This document shows, in pieces, positions 1 through 5,697 of a DNA stretch of 9,398 bases (position 1 is its first letter; each line of letters starts with the position of its first letter). The stretch is from Pseudomonadota bacterium. GTDB taxonomy: Bacteria; Pseudomonadota; Gammaproteobacteria; Burkholderiales; Thiobacillaceae. The DNA is taken from NCBI GenBank assembly GCA_021791235.1, contig JAJYXA010000537.1, positions 1 through 9,398 on the forward strand, in the 5' to 3' direction. The notes below the pieces were generated by a model, which was not told the origin of the DNA, ran no database searches, and saw only the letters and a program-made list of their open reading frames with translations. A program made the position numbers and the translations under genes.

Positions 1-715
1 CGGCGTCGGCCTGGCACTGGGTTCGGCCTGCGGCGTCGATGATGCGCATGTCGAACAACTGGCTGCGCTGGTTGACCGCATCGAGCCCGTACGCGTGTCC
101 GACCATGCCTGTTTCGCGCGCGCGCCCTGGTCGCAGCGCGGCGTCATCCACGCCAACGACCTGCTGCCCATCGCGTTCACGCACGGTTCACTGGACATCC
201 TGTGCAGCAATGTCGGCCAGGTGCAGGAACGGCTCAAGCGACCTCTGCTGCTCGAAAACCTGAGCGCCTACCTGGATTTCGCCGAGCGCGACTTCAGCGA
301 GCCGCAATTCTTTGCCGAGCTGGGCCGTCGCACCGGCTGCGGCCTTTTGCTCGACGTCAACAACCTGATGGTCAATGCACTGAATGCCGATGAACCCGAT
401 CCGCTCCAATCCGTGTGCAACTGGATCGATGAAGTGGCAGACGTGGCAGCGCCTGGCTTCGTCGGGGAAGTTCACCTGGCAGGCTTCAGCGCGCAAGCGG
501 GCCTGATCATCGACGACCATTCCAGCCCCGTGTCGGAACCTGTCTGGCAGGCCTACCGACATGCATTGAAGCGGCTGGGCCCGCTCCCCACGCTGATCGA
601 GTGGGATGAACACCTGCCTGCGTTTTCCGTATTGCTCGATGAGGCCGCAAAGGCCGAGACCTTGTGCGTAGCGCACCGGGTCGCACGGGCTGCTGTCGCA
701 GGAGTTGAAGCATGA
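1..715 (+). CDS. bufB: DUF692 / MNIO-family RiPP maturation enzyme (BufB-like), 5'-truncated by window edge
   Basis: The reading frame is open from base 2 to the TGA at 713-715, giving 237 residues; about 40-45 N-terminal residues of the usual ~280 lie outside the window. The family (multinuclear non-heme iron oxidases on a TIM barrel) modifies cysteines in bufferin-type or methanobactin-like peptides in the cytoplasm. Family landmarks appear in order: SDHACF, LLLENLSAYLDF (Glu ligand region), GLLLDVNN, GEVHLAGF, DDHSSPV and, near the end, LIEWDEHLPAF. The metal-ligand His, Glu, Asp and Asn positions therefore look intact. The stop codon overlaps the start of the next gene (ATGA), so the two are translationally coupled, as is normal for bufB-bufC. 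The DUF2282 precursor gene (bufA) is expected just upstream but cannot be seen. The family call is firm; the bufferin assignment rests on the DUF2063 and DoxX neighbours. Confidence 0.9.
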   Translation, partial: GVGLALGSACGVDDAHVEQLAALVDRIEPVRVSDHACFARAPWSQRGVIHANDLLPIAFTHGSLDILCSNVGQVQERLKRPLLLENLSAYLDFAERDFSEPQFFAELGRRTGCGLLLDVNNLMVNALNADEPDPLQSVCNWIDEVADVAAPGFVGEVHLAGFSAQAGLIIDDHSSPVSEPVWQAYRHALKRLGPLPTLIEWDEHLPAFSVLLDEAAKAETLCVAHRVARAAVAGVEA

Positions 716-1557
716 GTCCTGCACCCCAATTCGAGCAATCCCGGATGTCCGAGGCGCAGCGCCAGCGCGAACTGATCGAGGCGATATTTTCCCCCCGAGC
801 GGCGGACGCCGCGTGCGCGGGCGCGCAGCAAAACGGTGCGCGCTGGCGGACGGGGCTTGCGGCCTACCGCGGCAACGGCCGCGCCCATGCGTGCAATGCC
901 TTGCACGTGCAGTTTCCCACCGTGCTTGCCATGCTCGGCACGGAGACATTCGATGCCTTGTGCTTCAGCTATTGGCGTACATGCCCGCCGCGCCGGGGCG
1001 ACCTCGCCTGGGTCGGTGAAGAATTGCCCGCTTACATCAAGACGCTGGAAACCTTGGCTGAATGGCCCTGGCTGGCCGACTGCGCGCGCCTGGACTGGGC
1101 CGTGTGGCAGATATCCGGCGCGCCCCCGGCGACATTCTCCGAAAGCGACCTGCGTCGCCTGGTCGACGGCGATCCCGCCGCGCTCTCACTCAAGCTTTCC
1201 CCCAGTGTGCGCCGGCTGTCCTCGGCGTGGCCCATCGTGACCCTCTACGACGCGCACCGTCAGGCGCATCCGGACTGGGAGGCCGTCACCCGGGCGATTG
1301 CGCAAAACCACGCGCAAACAGCCTGGGTATGGCGCCCGCATGATGACCTTGCCGCGGCGCCGGCGGTGGAACTGCTCGATGCGGCAAGCCACCGCTGGAT
1401 CGCGGCGCTGGATGCCGGGCAAACGCTCGACCTTGCGCTCGACTCGGCCGGCGAGACGTTTGATTTCGCCGCCTGGCTGGAACAGGCAATCCGGCAAGGC
1501 TGGCTCGACGCCGTGGCCGATAGGCATGCGCCGTCAGATGCGATGGGCAATGCCTGA
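712..1557 (+). CDS. bufC: DUF2063 family protein (BufC-like partner of the DUF692 enzyme)
   Basis: This 281-aa soluble protein has the DUF2063 (HvfC/BufC N-terminal) signature between about residues 48 and 108: GLAAYRGNGRAHACNAL, then FPTVLAMLG, then a YWRTCPPRRGDL segment and VGEELPAYI. In bufferin systems this protein is thought to act as the peptide-binding partner that presents the precursor to the DUF692 oxidase, although the family was once labelled a putative DNA-binding domain. The start is set by AGGAG at 700-704, 7 bases before the ATG, which overlaps the bufB stop as ATGA. A later Met at residue 12 is possible but lacks such a good ribosome site. The C-terminal half is less conserved and I see no further motif in it. 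The family is confident; the partner role is established knowledge for homologues, not shown here. Confidence 0.88.
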   Translation: MSPAPQFEQSRMSEAQRQRELIEAIFSPRAADAACAGAQQNGARWRTGLAAYRGNGRAHACNALHVQFPTVLAMLGTETFDALCFSYWRTCPPRRGDLAWVGEELPAYIKTLETLAEWPWLADCARLDWAVWQISGAPPATFSESDLRRLVDGDPAALSLKLSPSVRRLSSAWPIVTLYDAHRQAHPDWEAVTRAIAQNHAQTAWVWRPHDDLAAAPAVELLDAASHRWIAALDAGQTLDLALDSAGETFDFAAWLEQAIRQGWLDAVADRHAPSDAMGNA

Positions 1558-2184: not shown

Positions 2185-2232
2185 CGGAGCCGGCCAATTT
2201 GAGACGGCCAGGCTGATCGCTATGACCGTCTA

Positions 2233-2303
2233 TTGTTCGGCCATTGCGGACGGTCGGGGGCCGCAGAGCGAACGGCTGCAGTAAGTTCTACTGTTGCCGT
2301 TCG
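2233..2303 (+). repeat. Left copy of a 71-bp inverted repeat bounding the central cassette
   Basis: Aligned by hand, this segment matches the reverse complement of 5561-5631 at 64 of 71 positions with no gaps. Both copies begin TTGTTCGGCC at the outer end. The longest shared run includes GCCGCAGAGCGAACGGCTGC. The inner part is itself palindromic: CGAACGGC (2269-2276) pairs with GCCGTTCG (2296-2303), and inside it CAGTA (2279-2283) pairs with TACTG (2289-2293). It could be the end of a mobile cassette or a member of a structured intergenic repeat family that has mediated insertion. No duplicated target site is visible outside it. Confidence 0.85.
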
Positions 2304-2409
2304 AGGATTCCGTTTCATGTGAGGCCTAACCCTCACGAGGGGAGGCAATGTGTGCCGCTATAGCTATCTATCGCCGCCGCTACGCGAAAGATTAAAAAAT
2401 GATGATTGC

Positions 2410-3075
2410 CTAAATGCCTAGGCTAAGTTGTACCTGAGCACGAGCCGTTGCTCTTTTCCAGAGCCACGCGTCAAATTCACGCCGTGGGAGCGCGAGTAAA
2501 TCCGCGGCACAGCAGAACGATCTCCGCAAAAAATGATAGTCGTCGTTCGCGACTCCAACCTGCCTCGCGAACGTACGCACATGTCGGTCGACCGCGATGG
2601 AATCGATGCCAACGAGGCACGCCATGTAATCAACAGTCTTAGGACCAATACCGTTGATGCTCTGAATAGCGTGACAGAACTGTTCGGAGGCCAGGTGGGT
2701 CCGCAAATCCTTAACGTCTTCGATGTCCCACTCCTTCAGGAAGGCGACTAGCATTTCGAAGCGGATTACCTTCTCATGATGGCGCCAGTTCAGGAACACG
2801 CCGGTGCTACGTTCCTCAATCAGCTCCAGCAACGCAGAAACCGTGTCCCGGTTGGGATAAGTCCGCAGAATGGTCAAGACTCGCGGACGAACAACAGTTG
2901 TGTAATTGAGTCCAGCTTGGAGCACCGAGTCCGCAAGAACCGCCCCTAAATGCTCACAAATAGCACGCGGAGCTTTTCGCTCCCCTAGTGCACCTTCGTC
3001 CATCGCGTGGTCAGCAATGCGACGTGCTGCAAGCAGAATCTCAATGGCAGACTCTTTTGCCCCAGTAAAACTCAT
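2410..3075 (-). CDS. HhH-GPD DNA glycosylase-like protein (OGG/EndoIII-like), QueC-associated
   Basis: This 221-aa protein has a helix-hairpin-helix at about residues 139-150 (INGIGPKTVDYM), followed by DSIAVDRHVRTFARQVG. Lys146 lies where EndoIII-type enzymes carry their lyase Lys, and Asp163 in AVDRHV matches the catalytic Asp of the HhH-GPD superfamily, so the active site looks intact. There is no C-terminal four-cysteine iron-sulphur motif, and the protein is close to the minimal fold. The N-terminal ~100 residues are helical and unlike housekeeping glycosylases. I chose the ATG at 3075, which overlaps the upstream stop as ATGA; upstream in-frame starts reach 3117 but run deep into the previous gene. 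Last gene of the operon. OGG-like genes sit beside QueC-like genes in type IV CBASS, so a role in recognising or cutting phage or modified DNA is plausible but unproven. Confidence 0.82.
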   Translation of the reverse strand: MSFTGAKESAIEILLAARRIADHAMDEGALGERKAPRAICEHLGAVLADSVLQAGLNYTTVVRPRVLTILRTYPNRDTVSALLELIEERSTGVFLNWRHHEKVIRFEMLVAFLKEWDIEDVKDLRTHLASEQFCHAIQSINGIGPKTVDYMACLVGIDSIAVDRHVRTFARQVGVANDDYHFLRRSFCCAADLLALPRREFDAWLWKRATARAQVQLSLGI

Positions 3076-3692
3076 ACTAGCCCCGCCTCTTTCAACGCAT
3101 TGAGGCGCTCGACGCAATTAGGACATGCACCGCACGGGAACTGTCCTGACGCCTGGCACGAATAGGTTCGGCCGATTGGCACCCCGAGTTCGACTGCCGC
3201 GCGAGCCACTTCTGCCTTGGGCGAGTGACGAAACGGGGAATGGAAGCGAACGGGACCAATACTCGAAGTAAGTCCATCAAGGCTGTTCATAAACGCTGCA
3301 GTGCAATCAATTTCTTTAGCATGGTTGCTGTTGATGAAGCCAGTGAAGACGTCAAGGATGCCGACGGTCTGTGCCCGAGCAGCGGCGGCTGCAAAAAAAA
3401 GCATCGTCCGATAGGGGATGTACAGGTCATCGTCCTTTACCTCTTCATTCCAGAGGTCGGCCTCGCGGATTAACCGCGACTGCGAGCCTCTGAAGATGTC
3501 TGATATGTCGAACCTTTCCGGTCGATGCATATCGGCGGGCAATACTTCATTAACGCGACTCCACTCAACTTCTACGCAATGCTGACCGTAATCGAAAAAT
3601 ATAGGTACGACCTGGACGCCTTCTGACATGAGTTGGTACCCAACAGTCGTTGAGTCCAACCCGCCCGAAGCCAAGAGAAGAGCCTTCTTCAT
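3072..3692 (-). CDS. QueC-like 7-cyano-7-deazaguanine synthase family protein (defence-type paralogue)
   Basis: This 206-aa PP-loop ATPase carries the N-terminal pyrophosphatase motif SGGLDS (residues 9-14), FDYGQ (33-37) and a C-terminal zinc site Cys179-x7-Cys187-x2-Cys190-x2-Cys193 within SCQASGQFPCGACPNC. Canonical QueC uses ATP and ammonia to turn 7-carboxy-7-deazaguanine into preQ0. Here the usual VPGRN segment reads YIPYRT (91-96) and the PDCR segment reads EIDCTAA, so the substrate pocket is altered. It is therefore likely a specialised paralogue such as those of type IV CBASS (Cap9) or qatABCD (QatC), not the queuosine-pathway enzyme. No queD, queE or queF is nearby. The start overlaps the preceding stop as ATGA and the stop overlaps the next start in the same way. 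Family call firm; substrate unknown. Confidence 0.88.
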   Translation of the reverse strand: MKKALLLASGGLDSTTVGYQLMSEGVQVVPIFFDYGQHCVEVEWSRVNEVLPADMHRPERFDISDIFRGSQSRLIREADLWNEEVKDDDLYIPYRTMLFFAAAAARAQTVGILDVFTGFINSNHAKEIDCTAAFMNSLDGLTSSIGPVRFHSPFRHSPKAEVARAAVELGVPIGRTYSCQASGQFPCGACPNCVERLNALKEAGLV

Positions 3693-5020
3693 TTCGACTC
3701 GGCCCTCAATTTTGCTAGTGCGTCAAAGACGCCATTGAGGCACTCATCAAGGTCCGCAGAGTATACGAAACTTCCGACAACGACCATTGTGTTGTTGTTC
3801 TCGTTTCGTGGGTCGAAGGTGATGACGGGTTTGCCCAACGCGACTGCCATGCCGATTTCGACTAACGTTCCAGGGTCGCGACCAAGCGGGACTGCGAAAA
3901 GAGCATCACACTCATTCAAAAGGTGGTAGTCCATGCCATAGGCGCGACGCAAGTCAGCCTGGTTTGCTGGCCGTTCGAGCTCACCATTTTCTAGGATTGG
4001 GCGACGCACCAAAAAATTGTGGTACTCAAGGCTGTCAACTACGCGATCAAGTTCTGGCTTCTGAACATACGAGAAATCAGGACCAGCTAGGTAGATAGAG
4101 AACCGCTGACGGTCGTGCCACGGCAGGATAGTGCCACCTAGCGTTCGCAGCGTCTCCACTGACAGGTTGAAGCCGCGCTGGATATCACGTTTCAGGTCAT
4201 CAGGGTATGTGGTTTGCGAATAAACCGTCGCAGCCTGACATCCGCGCCACGCTGCTTCACCCCAGCCCTTTCCTGAGAATCCATACATGACCGCTGAATA
4301 AACATCACCAACACCAACCGAGTTGACGGTCTTGCCTAGAGACGCTGGAATTTCTTCGACGGTGCCATCTAGCAGATTGAATAGCCTGCTTCCACCACGA
4401 TTTTCCTTTAACAAAAAAACGTCAGGCAAAAGCGCTTTAACCTCACTAATTAAATCTCCGATCTTCTCCATGCCCGCGGCCAAGAAGAGCGGGGACGATG
4501 TCGATATGATAATTGCGTGCAGGCGTCCCTTGAAAGCCTGAAGCGAAGAAAAATCCTTGACGTCATACGCGATGTCTAAGGCCAGCTTCGCTTCTGGCGA
4601 AAATCGCTCCAGCAGCCCGTTGATATCATATTTTCCTGGAAAAACAATTATCTTCTTGTAGCGTTCTAGATTCGGAAATGGCTCGCGCAGTTTGATTTCT
4701 TTACTGTCACGCAGCAAGTCCTGATAGCCCTGATGGGAGACCTCAATCGGGTCACCAATAATGATGATATTCGGAGACCCAACTATATCTCCCAACCAGA
4801 AGAACTCTTTGCATCCATGCGCTGCTAAATAACGACGCGCCTCGTCAGCAAGATATTGAGGGCAGAAAGCTGCTATCGAGTATTCCAACCCTGACGCCCA
4901 GAGGCCTCTTGCGGCATGGACTATGCCACCCAATCGAAGCTTGCACTCGGCACCATGTTGAGGGAGCGTAAAATCAACAACAATCTCCCCAACAATCAAG
5001 ACTTGATCAGTCATGGCCAT
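3689..5020 (-). CDS. PfkB-family kinase fused to a nucleoside 2-deoxyribosyltransferase-like domain
   Basis: This 443-aa protein has two domains in one uninterrupted frame. Residues ~5-300 form a PfkB/ribokinase-like kinase: VLIVGEIVVDF at the start, the Gly-Gly segment LRLGGIVHAARGL (28-40) and the C-terminal signature NSVGVGDVYSAVMYGF (233-248) with catalytic Asp239 in GVGD. Residues ~306-430 form a nucleoside 2-deoxyribosyltransferase-like Rossmann domain: FSIYLAGPDFSY (307-318), NECDALFAV and GTLVEIGMAVALGKPVITF (384-402) with the predicted nucleophile Glu388. Such domains cleave or exchange the base of a deoxynucleoside or nucleotide, and PfkB enzymes phosphorylate sugars or nucleosides. 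A joint role in handling a modified nucleoside or in breaking down nucleotides is inferred. The start ATG at 5020 is 2 bp after the previous stop; a second Met at residue 3 is equally possible. No strong ribosome site, so coupling is likely. Confidence 0.85.
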   Translation of the reverse strand: MAMTDQVLIVGEIVVDFTLPQHGAECKLRLGGIVHAARGLWASGLEYSIAAFCPQYLADEARRYLAAHGCKEFFWLGDIVGSPNIIIIGDPIEVSHQGYQDLLRDSKEIKLREPFPNLERYKKIIVFPGKYDINGLLERFSPEAKLALDIAYDVKDFSSLQAFKGRLHAIIISTSSPLFLAAGMEKIGDLISEVKALLPDVFLLKENRGGSRLFNLLDGTVEEIPASLGKTVNSVGVGDVYSAVMYGFSGKGWGEAAWRGCQAATVYSQTTYPDDLKRDIQRGFNLSVETLRTLGGTILPWHDRQRFSIYLAGPDFSYVQKPELDRVVDSLEYHNFLVRRPILENGELERPANQADLRRAYGMDYHLLNECDALFAVPLGRDPGTLVEIGMAVALGKPVITFDPRNENNNTMVVVGSFVYSADLDECLNGVFDALAKLRAESK

Positions 5021-5022
5021 AA

Positions 5023-5400
5023 TTACTGCGCGACGAAATCAGCCTCCACGGATGGGATCGGGGAAACTGTTGATGATTTGACGACACCAACGTAGCTAAT
5101 TCCACTAGCTAGGCATGCAGCAAGGTAATTGAATGAAGTGGGAAGTGCACCAACTGTGGCGCCACTCGAATCAACGGCAAATATTCGTTCATTCAGAACG
5201 ATGCTGAGCTGAGAGTTATGCAAAGGAACTGTTTTCGATTTGGCGTAGTAATCGCATTGAGCCACTTCCTCCAATATGCACGAGAACGCCTGCCGGCATT
5301 TATCAACACCGCTCGCACCACCTCCTGTTCCCTGACCGGTGTCACCGCCGCTTTTTGCGCCGGAATAGTCAGAAAAACGACCAGAACCCGTGCTTCCCAT
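5023..5400 (-). CDS. Small unknown protein with Met-Gly-Ser start and Gly/Ser-rich tail, first gene of the cassette operon
   Basis: This 125-aa protein belongs to no family I can name with confidence. Residues 1-32 are rich in Gly, Ser and Thr and begin MGSTGSGRFSDYSG, suggesting an exposed flexible tail whose initiator Met would be removed to leave an N-terminal Gly. Residues ~33-125 look folded: a helix with DKCRQAFSCILEEVAQCDY, then alternating beta segments (LSIVLNERIFAVD, TVGALPT, a short NYLAACLASG helix, SYVGVVKSS, VEADFVAQ). The order strand-VGALP-helix-strand faintly recalls HIRAN-like small beta barrels, but this is weak. There is no signal peptide or membrane segment. AGGAGG at 5405-5410, 4 bases before the ATG, is the best ribosome site in the operon, so this gene is probably made in excess of the rest. 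Being first and strongly translated fits a substrate or binding protein. Confidence 0.8.
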   Translation of the reverse strand: MGSTGSGRFSDYSGAKSGGDTGQGTGGGASGVDKCRQAFSCILEEVAQCDYYAKSKTVPLHNSQLSIVLNERIFAVDSSGATVGALPTSFNYLAACLASGISYVGVVKSSTVSPIPSVEADFVAQ

Positions 5401-5435: not shown

Positions 5436-5560
5436 GCCTTATGCATGCTTCGTTCTAGCCAGTGTACCAAAGTGCGAGATAAGACTCTCTTGCCGCCCGT
5501 CTCGGTTCGGGTACTATCGTTCGGTCCGAGTGAGGACTACCGTTCAGGCCGAAAACGCTT

Positions 5561-5631
5561 CAAACGGCAGCAGTAGAACTTGCTGCAGCCGTTCGCTCTG
5601 CGGCACCCGACCGTCGGGAAAGGCCGAACAA
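5561..5631 (-). repeat. Right copy of the 71-bp inverted repeat bounding the central cassette
   Basis: The reverse complement of this segment matches 2233-2303 at 64 of 71 positions without gaps. Its palindromic core is kept but partly degenerate: AACGGC (5563-5568) pairs with GCCGTT (5588-5593), and the inner arm has one G-U to G-C change and one broken pair relative to the left copy. The copy lies 160 bp upstream of the operon start codon, so the operon promoter is probably inside the repeat boundary. Outside it, 5632-5697 has only a short direct repeat of GGCCGACCT (5669-5677 and 5689-5697) before the DUF488 stop. Confidence 0.85.
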
Positions 5632-5697
5632 GAGCCAGTCGAACGACGAAGCTTGAACTTCCGCACATGGCCGACCTCTGAAGTTCCGGGCCGACCT

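What the first reader, a model, noticed from the sequence alone, without database searches (positions are those of the whole stretch)
2410..5400. Undescribed four-gene operon: small Gly-leading protein, PfkB-deoxyribosyltransferase fusion, QueC-like and HhH glycosylase-like
The four genes are fused by ATGA overlaps or a 2-bp gap into one unit, sit on a lower-GC cassette and join three nucleobase or nucleoside enzymes with a small unknown protein. QueC-like and OGG-like genes are known accessories of type IV CBASS, and QueC-like is part of qatABCD. However, the nucleotide cyclase, TGT-like protein, QatA ATPase and TatD nuclease are all missing. This suggests a separate, compact anti-phage or nucleobase-conjugation system in which the kinase/deoxyribosyltransferase protein takes a slot filled by other enzymes in CBASS.
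Basis: partly seen in the sequence, partly recalled or inferred. Interest (0 to 1): 0.88.

Follow-up and report, generated by a model that had tools for sequence, protein, structure and literature searches.

The report
Four-gene QueC–HIRAN phage-defence cassette
A small set of four genes that travels between very different bacteria and phages looks like an undescribed anti-phage system in which a tRNA-modification-type enzyme attaches a nucleobase to the glycine start of a DNA-binding protein.

Summary
The unit is real: 36 of 38 genome loci found with the QueC-like protein carry all four genes in the same order; the other two are cut by a contig end. Close relatives occur in distant bacteria, plasmids and phage contigs, some beside defence genes, 9 of 38 beside a dGTPase.

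The small protein, of no known family, is a disordered, glycine-starting tail (G2 in 155 of 155 sequences) on a predicted HIRAN DNA-binding fold. This matches the substrates of the QueC-like enzymes of type IV CBASS (MGGS) and qatABCD (MGTS). A sister branch, matching published "Cluster 4" (read there as purine salvage), has a similar small protein–PfkB/NDT–QueC core.

Best explanation: a third class of QueC-based defence. The QueC-like ligase joins a carboxylated, guanine-like base to Gly2; the kinase/deoxyribosyltransferase reads or processes the tag; glycosylase and dGTPase attack DNA or nucleotides. Nine of 35 hosts lack canonical QueC and none of those nine matched a QueE model, so the base may not be host CDG. 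Defence activity and chemistry are inferred, not shown.

The parts
5023..5400 (-). Small protein (125 aa): glycine-starting disordered tail MGSTGSGRFSDYSG (residues 1-30) plus predicted HIRAN-fold domain (about residues 31-125); proposed conjugation acceptor and DNA-binding part
3689..5020 (-). PfkB-type kinase (residues 2-294) fused to nucleoside 2-deoxyribosyltransferase (residues 309-408)
3072..3692 (-). QueC-like ATP-dependent ligase; proposed to join a carboxylated base to Gly2 of the small protein
   Evidence: PF06508 110.7 bits; SGGLDS, YGQ, four zinc-type cysteines and D129 invariant in 42 of 42; Tyr of YPDC replaced by E127 in 42 of 42
2410..3075 (-). HhH (OGG/EndoIII-type) DNA glycosylase-like protein
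   Evidence: PADLOC OGG E 6.2e-5; weak alignment to EndoIII 1orn E 0.053 over the HhH core; K146 and D163 in 42 of 42
2224..2304 (+). Left arm of the 81-nt inverted repeat that brackets the cassette; it contains a hairpin
   Evidence: 88% complementary to 5560-5640; fold z -4.7
5560..5640 (-). Right arm of the 81-nt inverted repeat
   Evidence: fold z -2.7 for the + strand

Best explanation
A compact, horizontally mobile anti-phage defence system, third in the line of type IV CBASS and qatABCD. (1) Met1 of the small protein is removed, exposing Gly2 on a flexible tail (inferred). (2) The QueC-like enzyme adenylates the carboxylate of a guanine-like base and joins it as an amide to Gly2 (inferred from motif conservation and from Cap9; D129 for the guanine edge and the ATP and zinc sites are kept, but the stacking Tyr is replaced by Glu127). 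(3) The HIRAN domain holds the tagged protein at DNA, probably at ends or 3' single strands made during phage replication (inferred from the predicted fold). (4) The PfkB-NDT fusion reads the base tag or modifies it by adding or removing a (deoxyribosyl) sugar and phosphate, filling the place that the transglycosylase-fold protein Cap10 has in CBASS (inferred). (5) The HhH glycosylase/lyase, in some loci with a neighbouring dGTPase, damages or starves phage DNA (inferred). Shown here by sequence: the fixed four-gene unit, conserved active sites, the invariant Gly tail, predicted folds, near-identical proteins in distant taxa, and defence-type neighbours.
For: All four genes in the same order in 36 of 38 genome loci, the other two cut by a contig edge; the first three genes in 12 of 12 viral-contig loci and all four in 10 of 12; all four in 3 of 3 plasmid loci read. 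Reverse direction: 4 of 4 plasmid records with the small protein also carry the QueC-like protein at 70-85% identity. M1 G2 in 155 of 155 small proteins; residues 1-14 are more conserved (mean top-residue frequency 0.87) than 15-27 (0.43) and 28-125 (0.68) although modelled as mostly unstructured. CdnD (MGGS) and QatB (MGTS) are the published precedent (PMC13279940). HIRAN fold. In 9 of 9 Cluster-4-like loci read, a small protein with a glycine-rich tail, a PfkB-NDT fusion and a QueC-like protein stand in this order; small-protein homology was tested for seven, QueC for nine. Neighbours match PtuA, PtuB, GajA, dGTPase and type I RM; 486 PADLOC families hit against 37 around canonical queC in 20 of the same hosts. 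dGTPase in 9 of 38 genome loci, 3 of 9 sister loci, 0 of 20 controls. QueC-like identity 86% in a deltaproteobacterium and in Kosakonia.
Against: No experiment. The Tyr that stacks the 7-deazaguanine in Cap9 and QueC is Glu127 here. Nine of 35 hosts lack canonical QueC, none of those nine matched the QueE model, and seven have no QueD match, so host CDG cannot be assumed. HIRAN is a fold match only: best Foldseek E 1.5e-3, none at 0.001 or below, no Pfam HIRAN hit, 11-15% identity. Sister small proteins mostly start MSG, not MG. The HhH assignment is weak by sequence, and the HhH ORF is short (127 aa) in L014. No dGTPase in 29 of 38 genome, 12 of 12 viral and 3 of 3 plasmid window-clade loci. 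Neighbour counts rest on crude ORF calls and redundant PADLOC models; the GajA and PtuA models may hit the same ATPases.
Confidence: 0.6

Rival explanations
1. A nucleoside or purine salvage operon (the reading published for the sister Cluster 4): the QueC-like enzyme amidates or activates a purine-like acid, and the NDT-kinase recycles nucleosides.
For: Three of the proteins are of nucleobase/nucleoside enzyme families and keep catalytic residues; PMC13329287 proposes salvage for the PfkB-NDT partner of Cluster 4.
Against: Salvage does not need a 125-aa protein with a DNA-binding-type fold and an MG start in 155 of 155 sequences, nor a DNA glycosylase; patchy occurrence (1 of 274 sampled genomes of one class, and that one the chosen centre); cassettes beside phage genes and beside matches to Septu, Gabija and RM families.
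Confidence: 0.12
2. A DNA base-modification or restriction module: the QueC-like enzyme and NDT-kinase make an unusual deoxynucleotide for DNA, and the glycosylase removes bases from unmodified or foreign DNA (Dpd-like logic).
For: QueC, NDT, a nucleoside kinase and a glycosylase would fit making and policing a modified base; QueC-like proteins occur in 221 phage records at under 60% identity; one Dpd system lies among the control canonical-queC neighbours.
Against: No base-inserting transglycosylase among the window's proteins; the Gly tail of the small protein would be unexplained; hosts without QueE and mostly without QueD.
Confidence: 0.13
3. A phage-borne counter-defence or superinfection-exclusion moron rather than a bacterial defence system.
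For: Twelve IMG/VR loci; in L037, L049, L052 and L054 the gene upstream of the cassette is a phage family of unknown function (phrog_6367), and in L049 a tail-terminator gene follows directly.
Against: Genome and plasmid copies also lie beside bacterial defence-type genes; how many copies are prophage-borne was not counted. Superinfection exclusion by a prophage would still be defence.
Confidence: 0.1

Closest known systems
Type IV CBASS (Cap9 QueC-like, Cap10 TGT-like, CD-NTase; the OGG accessory is recalled, and is a PADLOC model name)
   Same: QueC-like enzyme of similar length (206 against 191 aa chain) with the same kind of ATP and zinc motifs (C-x7-CxxCxxC); OGG-like partner; a substrate-like protein starting MG on a flexible tail; a second nucleobase enzyme beside it
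   Different: No CD-NTase and no TGT in the unit; the substrate candidate is a predicted HIRAN-fold protein; a PfkB-NDT fusion stands where TGT would; base-stacking Tyr replaced by Glu127
qatABCD (QatB/QatC)
   Same: Protein with an unstructured, conserved MG-S N-terminus encoded with a QueC-family enzyme
   Different: QatC is about 400 aa with extensions; QatB is all-helical (PMC13279940); no QatA ATPase or QatD nuclease in the window; the window QueC-like scores 14.7 against the QatC cut-off 280
PF06508 Cluster 4 of Libby et al. 2026 (QueC-like beside PfkB-NDT); my nine loci are assigned to it by motif and neighbour
   Same: Same gene order small protein-PfkB/NDT-QueC; homologous small proteins (hhalign probability 97 for seven of them); OGG-type glycosylase in 6 of 9 and dGTPase in 3 of 9 loci
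   Different: Separate, fully supported clade (100/100 and 100/99); CH-x5-CxxCxGCxK against CQ-x6-CGACPNC; His in place of Glu127; small proteins start MSG/MSS/MGG/MCG; the genes after the core vary (nitroreductase-like, dGTPase, Mrr nuclease)
[quoted passage not shown]
   Same: SGGxDS, YGQ, Arg95, Asp129, zinc-type cysteines
   Different: 97.9 bits against the 150.3 TIGR00364 cut-off; E127 replaces the YPDC Tyr; Thr96 replaces Asn of VPxRN; no queD/queE among the window's genes
HIRAN domains of HLTF/Rad5 and the HamB C-terminal part (Hachiman)
   Different: Stand-alone small protein with a Gly tail; 11-15% identity; DNA-contact residues not compared

Membership tests
Type IV CBASS | CD-NTase (cyclase) in the operon | tested here: not met
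   No nucleotidyltransferase hit among the window's ten proteins at E <= 1. In other loci the junctions leave no room for a fifth gene inside the unit; their flanks were not searched for a CD-NTase one by one
Type IV CBASS | TGT-like Cap10 | tested here: not met
   No TGT hit in Pfam for the window's ten proteins or in PADLOC for the four
Type IV CBASS | QueC-like Cap9 and OGG partner | tested here: met
   PADLOC QueC 2e-23, OGG 6.2e-5; Cap9 chain 9nto matched at 1.1e-9
qatABCD | QatA ATPase, QatD TatD nuclease, about 400-aa QatC | tested here: not met
   No such Pfam hits in the window; QueC-like is 206 aa; QatC model 14.7 bits against cut-off 280
Canonical QueC | Score over the TIGR00364 equivalog cut-off and YPDC motif | tested here: not met
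   97.9 against 150.3 bits; AKEIDC in place of YPDC in 42 of 42
PF06508 Cluster 4 | C-terminal CH(x)5CxxCxGCxK motif | tested here: not met
   Window clade CQ-x6-CGACPNC. The motif is met by 8 of 9 sister proteins; L059 lacks the His and the final Lys. The paper's YGQ(x)6E reads YGQ(x)5E in my alignment
Nucleoside 2-deoxyribosyltransferase | PF05014 over cut-off with catalytic Glu | tested here: met
   57.3 against 28.8 bits; E388 in 40 of 40 and 9 of 9; that it is the nucleophile is recalled
PfkB/ribokinase family | Ribokinase fold with GxGD catalytic Asp | tested here: met
HIRAN domain | HIRAN fold | tested here: met
HIRAN domain | Pfam HIRAN sequence model and DNA-contact residues | tested here: inconclusive
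   No HIRAN Pfam hit for the window protein or three sister proteins; contact residues not compared
HhH-GPD DNA glycosylase | HhH motif with catalytic Lys/Asp | tested here: inconclusive
   K146 and D163 in 42 of 42, aligned to GRKT and AVDTH of EndoIII at E 0.053; no HhH-GPD Pfam hit
Anti-phage defence system | Protection against phage | not testable with these tools
   Context only
N-terminal nucleobase conjugation | Base joined to Gly2 by the QueC-like enzyme | not testable with these tools
   Acceptor motif and active-site conservation only

The most novel reading that the evidence does not exclude
The system builds a nucleotide on the end of a protein: a carboxylated guanine-like base, possibly not made by the host but cut out of phage DNA by the HhH glycosylase or made by phage enzymes, is joined to Gly2. 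The NDT domain then moves a deoxyribose onto it (donor: deoxyguanosine supplied by the dGTPase), PfkB phosphorylates it, and the HIRAN domain brings this protein-borne nucleotide to phage DNA ends. This would be a new class of nucleotide-protein conjugate immunity that senses foreign bases.
Probability: 0.1. Interest if true: 0.96.

Novelty: new variant of a known kind. Interest (0 to 1): 0.8.

Why it matters
It would make nucleobase-protein conjugation by QueC-like enzymes a general strategy with at least one further class, and give a 125-aa predicted HIRAN-fold protein as candidate substrate for the open question of what the base tag does. The host survey makes a directly testable prediction, that the base is not (or not only) host CDG. 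It also re-reads a published QueC cluster (Cluster 4, 'purine salvage') as a probable defence family with a small partner protein; two bacterial and one haloarchaeal example of that partner have no Pfam hit over its cut-off, so a Pfam-based neighbourhood analysis would not see it.

Tried and rejected
Rejected: a housekeeping queuosine operon (no other queuosine gene in the window; below the equivalog cut-off); membership in CBASS IV, Qat or Cluster 4 (defining features not met). Led nowhere: E. coli genomes searched with the Kosakonia operon, no match; a plasmid search with the inverted-repeat region, no match; finding the repeat or an empty insertion site in relatives of the window host, nothing rang in 11, 11 and 2 genomes, which shows nothing without a positive control; PDB sequence search with the small-protein profile gave only marginal hits (best E 0.016, an S-layer protein). 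The de novo TIM-barrel matches of the HhH profile (E 2.9e-5 to 1.9e-4, better than EndoIII at 0.053) were set aside as chance because they are repeated low-scoring stretches outside the HhH core.

Limits: loci were found by exact peptide patterns (DDDLYIPY, TGFINSNH), so 38 is a lower bound. Of the 188 small-protein relatives only the best 120 are listed and were used. Gene calling around loci was crude (longest non-overlapping ORFs). Neighbours came from 40 loci (33 or so of the genome loci and viral ones with enough flank; L032 and L044 left out as near copies, L035, L036, L040, five short viral loci and the plasmid loci not used). Of 136 neighbour ORFs listed (up to two per side, 120 aa or more, over 900 aa left out) I submitted 114, dropping 22 by hand, mostly short ones. 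Of 120 control ORFs (three per side, 20 loci) I submitted 114. PADLOC family counts are not protein counts and many models overlap. Canonical QueC was tested in 35 host genomes (L035, L036, L040 left out as near copies or the same genome as others); QueD and QueE, one model each, in 17 of those 35 (all nine QueC-negative and eight QueC-positive hosts); among the nine, four are MAGs or uncultured by title and the rest drafts. In viral locus L047 the fusion matches only in part. The nine sister loci were chosen for diversity from 24 plasmid records at 42% identity or more, so '9 of 9' is not a random sample.
Full report
THE OBSERVATION. The window holds four - strand genes at 5400-5023, 5020-3689, 3692-3072 and 3075-2410, joined by a 2-bp gap and two 4-bp ATGA overlaps. 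They lie in a low-GC block (0.48-0.56 against 0.62-0.70 in flanking windows away from the borders) between ordinary chromosomal genes (MNIO/DUF692-type, DUF2063 and DoxX on one side; DUF488, transketolase and gamma-glutamyltranspeptidase on the other). An 81-nt, 88% inverted repeat brackets the block (2224-2304 and 5560-5640).

PRECEDENT. In type IV CBASS the QueC-like Cap9 joins 7-carboxy-7-deazaguanine to the N-terminal glycine of the cyclase (N-terminus MGGS). In qatABCD, QatB has an unstructured tail with an essential MGTS start and QatC is the QueC homologue (PMC13279940, parts 1-3 of 6 read; PMC11996544, abstract only). The window's MGS tail, its disorder and the nearby QueC-like gene fit this pattern.

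THE UNIT IS REAL AND MOBILE. A scan of one genome per species with the QueC-like alignment gave 38 loci. All four genes lie in the same order in 36 of them; in L006 and L040 (two contigs of one genome) the contig ends inside the fusion gene. The fusion-QueC junction is the 4-bp overlap in 34 of these 36 loci. Of 12 viral-contig loci, 12 have the first three genes (in L047 the fusion matches only in part) and 10 all four; L050 and L053 end within or just after the QueC-like gene. Three plasmid loci read have all four. Going the other way, all 4 plasmid records that encode the small protein also encode the QueC-like protein. QueC-like proteins 84-92% identical to the window's occur in Burkholderiales, Kosakonia, Pectobacterium, Marinobacter, Halomonas and a deltaproteobacterium, yet the small protein was found in only 1 of 274 sampled genomes of one class, namely the centre itself. 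A search of 5,426 E. coli genomes with the Kosakonia operon found nothing.

CONTEXT. In L037, L049, L052 and L054 the gene upstream of the cassette is a phage family of unknown function (phrog_6367), and in L049 a tail-terminator gene follows directly. Among 114 near neighbours, PADLOC matches (E <= 1e-5) include dGTPase (6 members), PtuA (5), PtuB (4) and GajA (4), with 486 families hit in all (models overlap, and GajA and PtuA models may hit the same ATPases); Pfam adds phage integrase (4) and type I RM domains (2). Some models are promiscuous: mad3 and AriA hit 5 neighbours each here and 3 and 2 in the control. Around canonical queC in 20 of the same hosts, 114 neighbours hit 37 families, many from one Dpd system. 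By tblastn a dGTPase lies within the held flanks of 9 of 38 genome loci (L030, L032, L034-L036 are close kin, so about five independent cases), 0 of 12 viral and 0 of 3 plasmid loci of the window clade, 3 of 9 sister loci and 0 of 20 controls.

A SISTER BRANCH. A plasmid search with the QueC-like protein led to a locus with a 30% identical protein, and a search with that one to 24 records at 42% identity or more. In nine such loci read (L004, L055-L062) a small protein with a glycine-rich tail, a PfkB-NDT fusion and a QueC-like protein stand in this order in 9 of 9, including two haloarchaeal plasmids and a cyanobacterial one. Eight of the nine QueC proteins carry the motif published for Cluster 4 of PF06508 (L059 lacks the His and final Lys; PMC13329287, parts 1-2 of 5 and the section on Cluster 4 read); assignment to Cluster 4 is thus by motif and neighbour. 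There about 89% have a PfkB-PF05014 neighbour and purine salvage is proposed; a find in that paper's main text for glycosylase and OGG gave none, and the parts I read do not mention the small protein. Seven sister small proteins start MSG or MSS, the two haloarchaeal ones MGG and MCG; hhalign links the seven to the window family (probability 97); the haloarchaeal two were compared only by eye. Genes around the core vary: nitroreductase-like in 5 of 9 loci (weak by Pfam, E 0.02), dGTPase in 3, Mrr-type nuclease in 2, OGG in 6, a Dam-like methylase in 3. A maximum-likelihood tree of 35 proteins puts window-clade, Cluster-4-like and canonical QueC in three supported groups (100/100, 100/99, 97/89), so the window clade is a distinct branch.

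WHICH BASE? In QueC and Cap9 a Tyr stacks the base and an Asp reads its guanine edge (PMC13279940). Here the Asp is kept (D129, 42 of 42 and 9 of 9), but the Tyr is Glu127 in the window clade (42 of 42) and His in the sister branch (9 of 9). Canonical QueC is over cut-off in 26 of 35 host genomes. Of 17 hosts tested further with one QueD and one QueE model, all 8 with QueC have a QueD and a QueE match (5 and 4 of them over cut-off); of the 9 without QueC, none has a QueE match and 7 no QueD match (one has QueD over the cut-off, one a weak hit). Five of these nine are isolates by record title (Sediminimonas, Paracoccus, Pleomorphomonas, Mesorhizobium liriopis, Aminobacter), and their stretch GFINSNHAKEIDC is the same as in the other hosts. 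Draft genomes can miss genes and other QueE types were not searched, but the pattern suggests that host-made CDG is not always the substrate.

INTERPRETATION. The best-supported reading is a defence system in which the QueC-like ligase tags a DNA-binding HIRAN-fold protein at Gly2 with a guanine-like base, the PfkB-NDT fusion reads or rebuilds the tag, and glycosylase and dGTPase act on DNA and nucleotides. Steps shown: gene unit, conservation, predicted folds, context. Steps inferred: Met removal, conjugation, tag processing, DNA targeting, protection. I put 0.6 on this statement as a whole and more on 'mobile defence system' alone.

IN PRINT? Full-text searches for deazaguanylation, QueC with defence and NDT terms, HIRAN with deoxyribosyltransferase, HIRAN with QueC and anti-phage, PfkB with QueC/NDT names, HIRAN domain with phage and QatB/QatC with N-terminal glycine showed no description, among the listed titles and abstract openings, of this four-gene set or of the small protein; several of these lists were capped, and the library lacks most subscription journals and bioRxiv.

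Noticed in passing
2224-2304 and 5560-5640: 81-nt inverted repeat (88%) bracketing the cassette, each arm with its own strong hairpin; may mark how the cassette was inserted. No copy found in the few genomes searched.
   Followed up: partly
L055, L056, L057, L062 (and L004:8599-9237): Cluster-4-like loci carry a small nitroreductase-like protein right after QueC, in the slot held by the HhH gene in the window (weak Pfam match).
   Followed up: partly
L055, L057, L062: A Dam-like DNA methylase and an OGG-type glycosylase form a pair on the opposite strand just downstream of the Cluster-4-like core.
   Followed up: partly
L059, L061: Haloarchaeal small proteins (211 and 219 aa) appear, by eye, to carry two copies of the HIRAN-like domain behind the glycine tail.
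   Followed up: no
L013, L044: In Pectobacterium and one viral contig the cassette lies near a 917-aa protein that looks like a P4-type primase (by eye) and a gene matching a phage regulator family (phrog_129), suggesting a P4-like satellite.
   Followed up: partly
window 2-1557: MNIO-family RiPP enzyme (MbnB/TglH/ChrH) followed by a DUF2063 protein and DoxX: looks like a RiPP cluster whose precursor gene would lie outside the window.
   Followed up: no
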